The position numbers and the translations under genes are program-made. From assembly GCA_029962745.1 (NCBI GenBank), contig CM057152.1, positions 23,765,176 to 23,829,175 of the forward strand: DNA of 64,000 bases, given 5' to 3'. Position 1 is the first letter of the stretch; each line of letters begins with the position of its first letter. The notes beneath the pieces were generated by a model. That model saw nothing but the letters and a program-made list of their open reading frames with translations, had not been told where the DNA came from and made no database searches. The DNA comes from Echinometra lucunter (taxonomy: Eukaryota; Echinodermata; Echinoidea; Camarodonta; Echinometridae). Positions 54,604 to 62,395 of this stretch are shown piece by piece.

Positions 54604-54877
54604 TATTGTATTAGATGAGAGACACGATCACATCAGACACAGAAACTCACCTAAATATGGCTTGTTTCCGTATCTCAGAGGCCTCTGAAGTGGTTACAGA
54701 AGAGCTGCGTTGTAACGTAGAGTTTATCTGAGGTTAGGTCTTCTCACTTGGATGTCTTTTCTGCAACTGGTACTATGGTGCTATGTCGGGGGGTCAACTA
54801 CGGGCGCGCCGTGCGTAACGGACGCACGGGCGCATTGGTGAGCGGGAGTGTGAGTTATTTCACGCCCTTATACAATA
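54604..54877 (-). repeat. 3' LTR
   Basis: 274 bp, base-for-base the same as 62122-62395 by eye. It contains a GC-rich 'gggcgcgccgtgcgtaacgg' block. It is the downstream LTR in the element's minus-strand sense. Confidence 0.93.
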
Positions 54878-54896
54878 CACCCCCCGGCCCTATAGA
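54878..54896 (-). other. Candidate polypurine tract
   Basis: Minus strand AGGGCCGGGGGGTG directly before the 3' LTR. It is interrupted by two C and ends in TG, so only a fair match to a plus-strand primer. Confidence 0.5.
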
Positions 54897-55104
54897 TTGG
54901 CATATATGGTGAAATTTTGAAGCTGTATGCCAATCTCTAAAGTAAATAATAACACAAGGACCAAAATAAATAAACAAAATACCCCTGTACAGCAAAATGT
55001 CAACAAAAACAACCTCCAAATTCTTTCTATTTACATTATTTACAAACAATGGGCCCCTACTCAGTTTTCCTGAGATGGGTTCCCATGGATAGGGTAGTTG
55101 TTCT

Positions 55105-56976
55105 CTAACAAAACAAATGCTGTGCGTTTGTATAGGTGGCTCTTACGAGGTCTGGGAGGGCCATTCCCCGAGCCATGGCTACGTGCTGCCCCACATCCCC
55201 AAGATAGTACGGGGTATTATAGCCACATTTGGGATGTAACTTTAGGTGGGAGGAGTCAGTCTCTAGCAGTAGCCGGTCAATGGGAATTTCCCTCACTGCC
55301 TGCAGTTGGTCCTTGTTAAAGGAACGGACAAGGCCTGTTAACCCGAAATAGGAATGAGGGAAAGAATCCAGCCAGGCCTGGGCCATACGGGCGTCTCCGT
55401 TAAAGCAGTGTAAGTGCACCCGTTGATGGGGGAGGCACTTTTTCTTTAAACGCAGTAAGGCCAGCCGGTTCGCGACCTTGCTACAAGGATCATCTGCTGA
55501 ACCACGTAGGTGCATAACAAGGATGCCCCCAAGGGTTCCCAAGGACAAAGTATTGTCGAACAGCTCCTCCTGGTGACGCCAGAGACTGTTCGGTACCAGT
55601 AAAGTCAAATCCCACTTCACTGATGGCGGACACCCGGGGATTAGACAGAAGGCCGAGGAAACACTCCCATTGGGCAGGCGTATAATTCGCCGCCTTCTTC
55701 GGGTGGATTCCTATGGCCAACTTCCAATTAGGGTCTCTTATTTTGCCAAGGACCTCTTCTTCAAAACCTGGACGAGAGAAGAAGTCCGGGTCGCAATAAT
55801 TAAGGGCTCCACCGGTGATTGGAAAAAAGTGGTCCGGTTCACGGCCTGGGACCATCACCCGGCGTGCATCCTGGCTGCCCGACGCTACTGCATTCAGTCT
55901 GTCTGGGTGAAAATGAGCATCAAACCCAGAAATTGTCTGCCCAGACGAAGACTGTTCCGTAGTTGTAGGAGTGGCAGTAGCCGGTGTTGGAAGACCAGGC
56001 TCCATTTCCACATCCTCAACAGGCTCAATTGGTGCGGGAGCCGGTGGAGGAGAACCAAATTCTCGATCAAGCTGGGTAACAGCCTCCCGCTGTTCGGAGG
56101 ACAACTTGTCCCACAAGAAAAGAGGACGCCAGTGGGTGAGAGTTGCCGGAGTGTTAATCGGCTGAAGGGTGGGAAACTACCCGTTCCCAACCTTCTCTCT
56201 CCAACAGCATTCCAATTTCTACTCGATCATTCTCATTGAGGGGGCTGTCCACAGCCTGCCAATTTTGGTTGGTGAAATTTACTAGGCTGTCGAGCGCATC
56301 AGAGCCCAGAAGAAAAGTTGCAATCATGCGCAATCCCTTAGCCCTCTTGGAAAGAGTATTTGACCATGCAGGGCCGGTGTATTCCCCCTGGGGACGGAAG
56401 AATTCAGGAAAGTGGTGGTAGACATGCCACCTAAGTTTAGGGGAGGCATGCCCACAACCTCCGATTGGGCAAGCAGATCTGTGCTTCTTCCGTCGCTGGT
56501 TTCCCACGGAGGCGGAAGGACGTTTTGTCCCCTTCCTGGCCCCTTGGTTAGGTTGGGTAAGGTTCCCAGGAACGGCTGGAGCCAGGAAGCAAGGCAAGTA
56601 TGCCTGCGCCCCTCCCGACTGCCAGTTCCTGGGGAACCGAAACCCTTGAGGTGGCACCTACCACAGGCTCCCGCTGAAGGGCCGGGTGACAACCGGAAAG
56701 CAAGGCAGATATGCCTGCGCCCCTTCCAGCTGCCTGGCCCTGGAGAAAGGAAGGGTTCAAGCTAGCACCTGGCACAGGCCCTTGTTGAGGGGCCGAGTAA
56801 CAGCCAGCTAACAAGACGGATGCGCGTGCGCCTCTTCCCTTTCCCGTTGCGGGCACCGTCTGTGTAGCCGCCGTGTTCGCGGGACATGATTCAGCAGTAG
56901 GACCTATTTCAACAGTAGGACCTATTTCAAATTTAACCTGCGGATTAGGGTTAGGGTAAAGGTCACCTTCACCCAT
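55105..56976 (-). pseudogene. Retroelement ORF2: repeat region, C2H2-like finger and TatD nuclease domain
   Basis: TatD proteins are metal-dependent nucleases with a TIM-barrel fold. The minus strand shows the family blocks in order: DAHFHPD near 55915 (HxH metal site), AIGIHP near 55720, SEVGFDFT near 55615 (catalytic Glu), HLHCFNGD near 55410, LLLETDS near 55260 (Asp) and GYNTPYYLGDV with TNAQHLF to the stop. Upstream is a Cys/His motif CPIGGC...H..H near 56470 and, from MGEGDLYP at 56976, three repeats of about 37 residues (RGA..S.LL.GC). The frame shifts by one surplus base near 56560-56600, 56157 and 55585; otherwise it would be about 620 residues. All catalytic motifs are kept. It lies where pol is expected. 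The start at 56976 is a guess. Confidence 0.82.
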
Positions 56977-60283: not shown

Positions 60284-62101
60284 ATATTTACAGCAATGTT
60301 CACACTAAATATGTAACAACTTCACTAACAAGAACAATATATAACAATATGTAACAGTGTCATTAAGAACAATATATGACAATGTGTAACACTGTCACCA
60401 CCACGAGCAATATACGACAATGTGTCACACTTTCGGTATCAAAACAAAATTAAATGCAATAATTGCAAATTAGGTAATGTTAATTAGTTAATACTGGGCA
60501 CTTGCACAGCTATAGTATGCGCTTACCAAACACAATTAAGTTCAAGTGACTATCCCATGTATACTATAAACAGATATACATGTGTATATATCACTATCGC
60601 GATGACAGTATATACATATTATTTCAAGCACCACGTAAGTTGCACGTAATACAACAGATGCAACCAATTTTTCAAAATATATGTACAATCAAAACACCTC
60701 AATGCACCAGCAAAATTTCGCTAAGTTTGAGTGTCGCACAATATAAGGAGCGACACAGATAAGTAAACCGGTTCTTCTTATTCAAGTATAATAAACAATC
60801 AATCACGGAAATAATTATTTAAACAAGCGCTTATCAATATCCGAGTATAATATAACAATCAACCACGGCAATAATCATTTAAATCACGGACGCGGTATCC
60901 ACTGCCAAAATTATTTAGACTGAACACGACAATACACCACGTGAATATAAATATAACCAACGTAGGCACAGGCGCTCACAAAAAAAATTTCAAGTTAATA
61001 TCGCAAGCACAAAGTGATTTTACGTGCTCACAAGAAAATATTAAAGTTTATATCAGAACCATAAAGGTAACTATAATCAGCGCTAGCGTTAACACTACTA
61101 TAATACAACAAGCGCGGATTATTTTAAGTTTTATAGGAATTAATTACTAACGAGCATACAAAATCACCATATGGAATGTCAAATTAGAACGCAATAAAAC
61201 ATTAACTGCGCTAATTTATAACAATTCCAGTAATAAAACTTAATTTCAAAAAAGAAATCACAGTCATTCAATTTAGAACATGAATGCAAACGACATCAAC
61301 TGACAACATCAATCACAATCATGTGAGGAATACGAAAGAAAAATCAGATACGATAACCCATACGAAGTTGCATCCGGGTTATACCGAGGACGCACGAAAA
61401 CTACCGAAGAACTATCAGAAGTAGGCCTACAAATGCTCGTTAATTTTTTTTTTCTTAAATGATTATTTTTAGTTTTGCTAACTTTACAACACTGTAATAA
61501 TCACGTATTAATCACGAAACAACACAATTATTACTCAACCATTAATGTTAACATAAAAGAATGGTGATACTGGGCTACGAACAGCTTGCAATAGCAAAGT
61601 ACCGATATATACACTCAAAGAAGCAAGCGATGTTTTCTTTTTCTTTTACTAAGAAAACATTGGAAAGCGACTGAAAAATAGCCGTCCAATAAATACCCAA
61701 ATTACTGAAAAAGGCTGACAATATGAATGGGCAAACCACTAAATTAATTTCGCGTTTGCCTCCACTTGTTAAATTGGCAACCGCCTTCAATGCCCTCCGA
61801 GCCGCTTTTTACATGCAGGCGCGGAATTCAAATGGAATGCGTGCCACGCCCAAGCTTTGTTCAGACGCTAGGCACACGAAAATGGCGTCCACAGCGTGTT
61901 AGCGCGACTTTTAAAATTAAGAAAAATAAATAGCTTACGCAATTTACGCCGTACTTAGATACCAAAAACAAGTAAAGAAAACTTAGTTTTATATATACAG
62001 GGTACTTATTTTGTACTAATTCAACACACTCCCGAGCAGAAGTAAGTGTCCGAAAATGGTGTCAAAATGGCGAGCAATTAATTAAAAAAATTACAAAGGT
62101 T
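60284..62101 (-). other. Long leader of the LTR element
   Basis: 1.8 kb between primer site and gag. AT-rich, no recognised ORF. Three diverged 'aacaatatatgacaatgtgtaacac' units lie near 60330-60430. Confidence 0.6.
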
Positions 62102-62119
62102 ATCCTGCTCGCAGCGCCA
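62102..62119 (-). promoter_or_regulatory. Primer-binding site, complementary to tRNA-Ser
   Basis: Minus strand TGGCGCTGCGAGCAGGAT, two bases inside the 5' LTR. Its complement ATCCTGCTCGCAGCG plus CCA has the form of an animal tRNA-Ser 3' end (T-arm ATCCTGC, acceptor strand, discriminator G, CCA). Confidence 0.8.
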
Positions 62120-62121
62120 TT

Positions 62122-62395
62122 TATTGTATTAGATGAGAGACACGATCACATCAGACACAGAAACTCACCTAAATATGGCTTGTTTCCGTATCTCAGAGGC
62201 CTCTGAAGTGGTTACAGAAGAGCTGCGTTGTAACGTAGAGTTTATCTGAGGTTAGGTCTTCTCACTTGGATGTCTTTTCTGCAACTGGTACTATGGTGCT
62301 ATGTCGGGGGGTCAACTACGGGCGCGCCGTGCGTAACGGACGCACGGGCGCATTGGTGAGCGGGAGTGTGAGTTATTTCACGCCCTTATACAATA
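62122..62395 (-). repeat. 5' LTR
   Basis: Identical to 54604-54877. Transcription of the element would start in this copy, on the minus strand. Confidence 0.93.

What the first reader, a model, noticed from the sequence alone, without database searches (positions are those of the whole stretch)
54604..62395. LTR retrotransposon carrying a TatD-family nuclease in place of pol
Seen: identical LTRs, tRNA-Ser primer site, gag with CCHC knuckle and, at the pol position, an ORF with all main TatD motifs (DAHFHPD, IGIHP, SEVGFDF, HLHCFNG, LLLETDS). No protease, RT, RNase H or integrase motif was found in any frame. Known: TatD proteins are ancient metal-dependent DNases/3'-5' exonucleases, and retroelements normally encode RT and integrase. 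Inference: a non-autonomous element that has captured a nuclease, perhaps for processing cDNA ends, opening target DNA or competing with other elements. I know of no standard LTR family with this gene set.
Basis: partly seen in the sequence, partly recalled or inferred. Interest (0 to 1): 0.9.

Follow-up and report, generated by a model that had tools for sequence, protein, structure and literature searches.

The report
Retrotransposon family carrying TatD nuclease
The stretch is a young, crippled copy of a jumping gene (Ty3/gypsy type) whose full-length relatives carry, besides the usual copying enzymes, a TatD gene for a likely DNA- or RNA-cutting enzyme that evolution has conserved in the full-length lineages but that is broken in this copy.

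Summary
Window 54605-62395 (minus strand) is a recent LTR insertion: identical LTRs, 5-bp target duplication, tRNA-Ser primer site, gag with zinc knuckle, TatD. TatD does not replace pol. Full-length copies C1938 and C1621 (11.7 and 11.5 kb) run gag, pol, then a 663-aa ORF3 ending in TatD, in the env position. The window copy shares a 3.4-kb pol deletion with ten other copies, and its TatD frame is broken. In seven such copies TatD drifts near-neutrally while gag stays constrained: TatD looks like passenger DNA in trans-mobilised derivatives. Between full-length and pol-less lineages TatD shows purifying selection, metal ligands kept. TatD lies 3' of pol at all eight related pol loci read there. 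Its clade holds proteins from sea urchins, a sea star, hemichordates and molluscs, beside a host TatD gene. A second pol-less lineage carries an in-frame Gag-TatD fusion (nine loci); TatD is still constrained in the five copies read. My searches found no paper on TatD-bearing retrotransposons. New variant of a known kind: enzymatic ORF3 in LTR elements.

The parts
62123..62395 (-). 5' LTR (element runs on the minus strand); ends uncertain by about 3 nt
   Evidence: 275-nt repeat, 100% identical to the other LTR; no difference in 273 sites
54605..54877 (-). 3' LTR
54600..54604 (.). target-site duplication ATATT (left)
   Evidence: read; flanks
62396..62400 (.). target-site duplication ATATT (right)
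   Evidence: read; flanks
62104..62119 (-). primer binding site, 16 nt, complementary to tRNA-Ser(UGA) 3' end with CCA
   Evidence: sequence; pattern: 4 places, 0 in control, one of the 4 (C1914) being itself beside an LTR copy; ARAGORN calls tRNA-Ser tga at one (L140) of the two places fetched
57859..60283 (-). gag: frames 59420-60283 and 57859-59706, broken by a frameshift near a G run at about 59450; zinc knuckle in the 3' part
57546..57802 (-). remnant of the pol 5' end (before the protease)
   Evidence: tblastn: pol aa 1-132, 51%
57541..57546 (-). [quoted passage not shown]
   Evidence: L015 3744 to 7167 missing here; same junction in 10 other copies, one with a small indel
57144..57539 (-). 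remnant of the integrase C-terminal end
   Evidence: tblastn: pol aa 1231-1361, 55%
56175..57000 (-). ORF3 5' part: low-complexity N-terminus, Zn-like motif CPIGGCGHASPKLRWHVYHHFP, conserved region; broken into several frames
55105..56173 (-). ORF3 3' part with the TatD domain, in two overlapping frames (55490-56116 and 55105-55620) separated by a 1-nt insertion

Best explanation
The window copy is a recently inserted, pol-deleted member of a Ty3/gypsy LTR-retrotransposon family whose full-length members are gag - pol - ORF3, where ORF3 is a Zn-motif protein ending in a TatD metal nuclease (gene order shown). The window subfamily is probably moved in trans by pol-bearing members with the same LTR and gag; its own TatD is decaying passenger sequence (inferred from identical LTRs together with broken TatD frames and near-neutral changes). 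Which copy supplies the RT was not found: of the two full-length copies, C1621 has pol in two frames, and the RT match of C1938 is 7 residues shorter than in two relatives. In full-length lineages TatD is a working gene (inferred from purifying selection and kept metal ligands). Most likely mechanism, about 40%: TatD acts inside or with the particle on the element's own nucleic acid, trimming or cleaving RNA in RNA:DNA hybrids or cDNA 3' ends before or at integration. Reasons: its nearest cellular branch is TATDN2-like, human TATDN2 is reported as a structure-specific RNase on R-loops, and a related pol-less lineage keeps TatD as a direct in-frame extension of Gag, which would carry it into the particle. 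No activity was measured.
For: Full-length copies: L015/L016 (C1938) and L017/L018 (C1621), 11,655 and 11,492 bp, LTR pairs identical; pol of C1938 with protease, RT, RNase H, integrase; intact 663-aa ORF3 directly 3', the same in C1621 at 99% identity. Same pol-deletion junction in 10 other copies. TatD in 7 pol-less copies: 9 disabling changes in 5.8 kb against 4 in 16.8 kb of gag, Fisher p 0.0012; private TatD changes N42:S16 (w 0.81, not different from neutral, p 0.28), gag N89:S57 (w 0.48, p 2e-5); full-length versus pol-less majority N3:S12 (w 0.08). TatD 3' of pol at 8 of 8 related pol loci read on that side: C1938, C1621, C7, C2053, C1932, C2055, C334, and a TatD fragment at C1914. Metal ligands HxH, E, H, H, D kept. 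TatD clade of 54 rows, support 95; host TATDN2-like branch beside it, support 83. Gag-TatD fused block at 9 loci; TatD within-lineage w 0.24, p 8e-10, in the 5 copies read. TATDN2 activity: PMC12709183, passages.
Against: A TatD-less sister subfamily (L022-L026; 4 of 5 span the pol-deletion junction) also spread, one copy with identical LTRs, so TatD is not needed in cis there. Two pol fragments of this clade (C1442, C9) have no TatD match on their 3' side in the capped genome list. Private N:S of TatD versus gag does not itself differ significantly (p 0.15); gag is less constrained than TatD on the full-length/pol-less comparison (N13:S8, w 0.50). No demonstrably working helper copy was seen. 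Some frameshifts could be assembly errors (gag break at a G run). The TATDN2-like placement has support 83 only, in a quick tree; other TatDs are DNA exonucleases and AP endonucleases (PMC10085689, abstract and passages), so an RNase role is analogy, not a test. The only structure model had low confidence (mean pLDDT 46.9) and was not used.
Confidence: 0.77

Rival explanations
1. TatD is required in cis by the pol-less elements themselves: the element trades pol for a nuclease that it uses.
For: In the second pol-less lineage Gag and TatD form one block at 9 loci, with frames of 1100 aa or more at 5 of 9, TatD within-lineage w 0.24 in 5 copies.
Against: In the window's own subfamily TatD is broken in 6 of 7 copies, 5 of the 7 with LTR pairs free of substitutions, and changes are near neutral; a TatD-less subfamily also spread.
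Confidence: 0.12
2. TatD works as a DNA enzyme: 3'-5' exonuclease or AP endonuclease that trims cDNA ends or repairs gaps and abasic sites in the cDNA.
For: TATDN1 and TATDN3 are 3' exonucleases and AP endonucleases, and the three E. coli paralogues are AP endonucleases too (PMC10085689, abstract and passages); profile matches YcfH 1yix at 7e-27; Group II HxH motif present.
Against: The tree puts the retroelement clade beside the TATDN2-like host branch, not beside YcfH.
Confidence: 0.3
3. TatD is a counter-defence enzyme that destroys host small RNA or nucleic acid of competing elements.
For: ORF3 position like env and accessory genes; the Zn motif could bind nucleic acid.
Against: Kept as a Gag extension in one lineage, which suggests action in the particle.
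Confidence: 0.12
4. The TatD is a one-off host TATDN pseudogene inserted in this copy.
For: The window copy itself is frameshifted.
Against: Same position in full-length elements and in other families; one continuous frame there; separate clade from the host gene, which matches in separate exon-like pieces.
Confidence: 0.01
5. The TatD is contamination or a bacterial gene beside the element.
For: Some database hits are named after bacteria (Thiodiazotropha, Sedimenticola MAGs).
Against: The three such rows put in the tree fall inside the animal clade; 16 bacterial loci chosen from the 80 returned and 3 E. coli paralogues fall outside it.
Confidence: 0.01

Closest known systems
Bdelloid rotifer LTR retrotransposons with enzymatic ORF3 (DEDDy exonuclease, GDSL esterase), PMC5408684 (abstract, passages, sections 3.3 and 4 read)
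   Same: gag-pol plus a captured enzyme 3' of pol; the paper reports invariant residues intact (with DEDD changed to DEED); [quoted passage not shown]
   Different: Different nuclease fold (DEDDy, not TatD); 'TatD' occurs 0 times in that text; the authors report no significant departure from neutrality, whereas TatD shows purifying selection here; here a Zn motif and an association with one pol clade
Cellular TatD nucleases, TATDN2 branch (PMC12709183, abstract and passages; PMC10085689, abstract and passages)
   Same: Same Pfam family, HxH (Group II) motif, same metal ligands; nearest cellular branch in the tree (support 83)
   Different: Sits in a mobile element, behind a Zn motif and a conserved N-terminal domain, in a clade of its own; no activity measured
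Other retroelements with added enzymes: m6A demethylase domain in orchid Ty3/gypsy (PMC9289625) and cytosine methyltransferases (PMC5890265); titles and starts of abstracts in search listings only
   Same: Retrotransposons that took up a nucleic-acid-modifying enzyme
   Different: Other enzymes, other hosts

Membership tests
Ty3/gypsy LTR retrotransposon | LTR pair with target duplication | tested here: met
Ty3/gypsy LTR retrotransposon | tRNA primer binding site | tested here: met
   (tRNA-Ser UGA)
Ty3/gypsy LTR retrotransposon | gag with zinc knuckle | tested here: met
   Retrotrans_gag itself below cut-off
Ty3/gypsy LTR retrotransposon | pol in order PR-RT-RNaseH-IN in the window copy | tested here: not met
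   only end remnants; so the window copy is a deletion derivative
Ty3/gypsy LTR retrotransposon | pol in order PR-RT-RNaseH-IN in full-length members of the same family | tested here: met
   (L015); also C7 and C2053 relatives
Ty3/gypsy LTR retrotransposon | placement in a pol tree with named clades | not tested
   no reference pol set was gathered
TatD nuclease (PF01026) | significant profile match | tested here: met
   P0005 6.7e-36, L042 ORF3 3.5e-39
TatD nuclease (PF01026) | metal ligands HxH, E, H, H, D | tested here: met
   (ligand roles recalled)
TatD nuclease (PF01026) | nuclease activity | not testable with these tools
   needs protein
TATDN2 orthologue | falls within the TATDN2 branch | tested here: inconclusive
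   beside, not inside, a branch of one host gene (three exon-like pieces) and P0126, support 83; the name TATDN2 for that branch is recalled
Rotifer-type DEDDy ORF3 | DEDDy exonuclease fold | tested here: not met
   Pfam gives TatD, no exonuclease family of the DEDDy type, for the ORF3s scanned

The most novel reading that the evidence does not exclude
A TatD nuclease was taken from a TATDN2-like host gene into one Ty3/gypsy clade long ago, has travelled with it through echinoderms, hemichordates and molluscs as a standing third gene, and works in the particle as a second RNase/nuclease of reverse transcription. Twice, elements lost pol but kept gag and TatD; in one case the two became a single Gag-TatD polyprotein that carries the nuclease into particles powered by another element's RT.
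Probability: 0.35. Interest if true: 0.85.

Novelty: new variant of a known kind. Interest (0 to 1): 0.72.

Why it matters
It gives retrotransposon biology a new, apparently old and selected accessory nuclease, and a testable question: why would an element that already encodes RNase H and integrase keep a TatD enzyme? The Gag-TatD fusion gives a natural tether for in-particle work. It also warns annotators that invertebrate genes named TATDN2, YcfH-like or TatD-like may often be retrotransposon ORF3s: 34 of the 53 TatD matches listed in this genome (32 places, since two are split) lie in or near gag, pol or LTR homology (my tally).

Tried and rejected
Rejected: 'TatD in place of pol' (full-length copies carry both); one-off pseudogene; bacterial contamination. 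P0119 (Pecten, RVT_1 plus TatD in one gene model) was rejected as proof of linkage: its RT piece has no match to these pols at 1e-3, so the model may be a fusion. P0105 (Elysia, 'LOW QUALITY' model) is kept as weak support: its RT piece is 61-66% identical to the four TatD-linked pols compared and 46% to one pol of the TatD-less class. The AlphaFold model of P0005 (5-row alignment) had mean pLDDT 46.9 and was not searched against fold libraries. The first protein search with a 171-aa piece gave only 4 hits. The 39%-pol class has another ORF3 and no TatD nearby. L009 is a truncated copy, left out of the 7-copy comparison (its TatD is also frameshifted; with it the private count is N49:S20, w 0.75); L020 and L021 are rearranged and were left out. 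L010 sits in a tandem that shares an LTR. In the tree, bacterial rows are 16 of 80 loci plus 3 E. coli genes, and animal rows 40 of the listed hits, chosen by hand. Repbase and subscription journals were not searchable.
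Full report
What is there. The element lies on the minus strand between two LTRs (54605-54877 and 62123-62395) that are 100% identical, flanked by the 5-bp duplication ATATT. Behind the 5' LTR is a 16-nt primer site (62104-62119). A pattern made of its complement and a T-arm occurs at four places in the genome and at none in the reversed control; one of the four (C1914) is itself beside an LTR copy. Of the two other places that I fetched, ARAGORN calls tRNA-Ser(UGA) at one. 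Gag (57859-60283) has a zinc knuckle and is frameshifted. TatD is confirmed by Pfam but is split by a 1-nt insertion.

Where pol went. The genome (743 Mb, unnamed; the nearest named relatives are sea-urchin proteins) holds other copies: 41 matches to the window's LTR-TatD end, from 40 scored candidates. Of those read, C1938 (L015/L016) and C1621 (L017/L018) have 3.4 kb more between the window's positions 57541 and 57546. [quoted passage not shown] its RT match spans 152 residues against 159 in the C7 and C2053 relatives, so its activity is unsure. In C1621 pol is in two frames. Directly behind pol is an unbroken 663-aa ORF3 that ends in TatD; C1621 encodes the same at 99% identity. Both copies have identical LTR pairs and different flanks. 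The window keeps only the two ends of pol, and the deletion junction is the same in ten other copies, one with a small indel. So TatD is an added gene in the env position, and the window copy is a deletion derivative.

ORF3. Four aligned ORF3s (one cut short before the motif) share TatD, a low-complexity linker and a conserved domain with an 'NTPAxLxHWRxL'-like stretch; three of them show a Cys-Cys...His-x3-His motif. The 'HWR' stretch is also seen by eye in mollusc, sea-star and urchin proteins P0048, P0052, P0069, P0094 and P0074. All metal ligands (HxH, E, H, H, D) are kept in the retroelement TatDs of this genome that were aligned (ligand roles recalled); the Elysia row P0105 lacks some of them. 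PHD fingers end pol in the C7 and C2053 relatives; L015 shows only what looks like a decayed remnant there (by eye).

How old and how widespread. Pol searches scored 34 and 33 candidates of about 1700 each and found relatives at 55-59% identity to the family's pol. TatD follows pol at 8 of 8 such loci read on that side: C1938, C1621, C7, C2053, C1932, C2055, C334 (frame broken) and C1914 (a TatD fragment before the LTR). A ninth (C14) has TatD 2.3 kb downstream by coordinates only. Two pol fragments, C1442 and C9, have no TatD on their 3' side in the genome list. None of five loci of the 36-39% class (C1973, C2016, C537, C15:11302600, C12:4957716) has a TatD match nearby in that list; two of them were read 1.5 kb past pol and show no TatD, one with a different 281-aa ORF3. 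A TatD profile search scored 8000 candidates, of which 4115 passed; the 120 listed include sea urchins, a sea star, hemichordates and molluscs. A tree of 75 hand-chosen rows puts 54 (this genome's retroelement TatDs and animal hits) in one clade (support 95), next to a branch of a host gene in exon-like pieces plus P0126 (support 83), with bacteria outside (quick method). An Elysia gene model joins an RT piece 61-66% identical to four of these pols to a TatD. Whether each animal hit is in a retroelement was not tested.

Selection. TatD of L015 against nine other copies gives dN/dS 0.10-0.26. Full-length versus pol-less majority: 3 nonsynonymous to 12 synonymous changes (w 0.08); for gag 13 to 8 (w 0.50). 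Private changes in the 7 pol-less copies: TatD 42 to 16 (w 0.81; not different from neutral, p 0.28), gag 89 to 57 (w 0.48, p 2e-5). Disabling changes: TatD 9 in 5.8 kb, 6 of 7 copies broken (in L010 only near the C-terminus); gag 4 in 16.8 kb, 4 of 7 open; Fisher p 0.0012. Against my reading: the N:S difference between TatD and gag is not itself significant (p 0.15). Five of these seven copies have LTR pairs without a substitution, so most changes probably predate insertion: TatD drifts while the elements still move. A subfamily without TatD also spread (L022-L026).

A second pol-less lineage. At C13:3166500-3172700 a single 1107-aa frame runs gag - part of the protease (by eye) - TatD. The block occurs over its whole length at 9 loci, the other eight 93-98% identical to this one; frames of 1100 aa or more in 5 of 9. 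In the five copies whose TatD I read, within-lineage w is 0.24 (p 8e-10 against neutral): 3 are collinear and open, one has a 36-nt in-frame deletion, one a 1-nt deletion. Here TatD is kept as a Gag extension, which would place the enzyme in the particle (inferred). LTRs of this lineage were not read.

Function. Human TATDN2 is described as an RNA 3' exonuclease and endonuclease that resolves R-loops (PMC12709183, passages); TATDN1 and TATDN3 are 3' exonucleases and AP endonucleases (PMC10085689, abstract and passages). I favour action on the element's own RNA:DNA hybrid or cDNA ends (about 40%), with DNA-end processing (30%) and counter-defence (12%) as rivals; none is tested.

Known or new. 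Searches for TatD or TATDN with retrotransposon terms, and for extra ORFs and nucleases in LTR elements, listed no paper on TatD-bearing retrotransposons, judged by titles and starts of abstracts of the rows listed, and for PMC5408686 and PMC6962438 by passages. The second lists TATDN2 among non-Hox genes in the giant-squid Hox cluster. The library is open-access only, and Repbase was not available. The closest system is the enzymatic ORF3 of rotifer LTR elements (PMC5408684). Hence: a new variant of a known kind.

Noticed in passing
31687-34911 (-) and 46619-51020 (+): Two oppositely oriented, related reading-frame sets that look (by eye, recalled motifs) like RT and tyrosine recombinase of a DIRS-type retroelement.
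   Followed up: no
38957-39373 (-) and 43168-43581 (+): Inverted pair of closely similar leucine-rich-repeat-like ORFs (by eye).
   Followed up: no
L032 and L031 (pol of C7 and C2053 relatives), C-terminal end: A PHD finger ends the pol/integrase frame (Pfam 5e-10 and 2e-9), perhaps a chromatin-reading targeting module like the chromodomain of chromoviruses (recalled).
   Followed up: partly
L022-L026: TatD-less sister subfamily with LTRs mostly about 73-75% identical to the window's (L022 86%), but gag about 90-96% identical in the four copies that have it: suggests recombination or template switching between subfamilies.
   Followed up: partly
L010; L021 with C1914:11498-17282: Two tandem arrangements in which neighbouring elements share one LTR. 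At C1914 the match to the tRNA-Ser 3' end beside the LTR is longer than the window's primer site (22-nt pattern).
   Followed up: no
L037 (C1973): The 36-39% pol class carries a different ORF3 (281 aa) with a C2H2-like motif by eye; may show what ORF3 was before TatD joined.
   Followed up: no
L053:1324-4644: Gag of the fused lineage has a weak helix-hairpin-helix match near its N-terminus (HHH_3, 8e-4, below cut-off).
   Followed up: no
P0037, P0054, P0072: TatD proteins filed under sulfur-oxidising symbiont MAGs (Thiodiazotropha, Sedimenticola) fall inside the animal retroelement clade: perhaps host DNA binned with the symbiont.
   Followed up: partly
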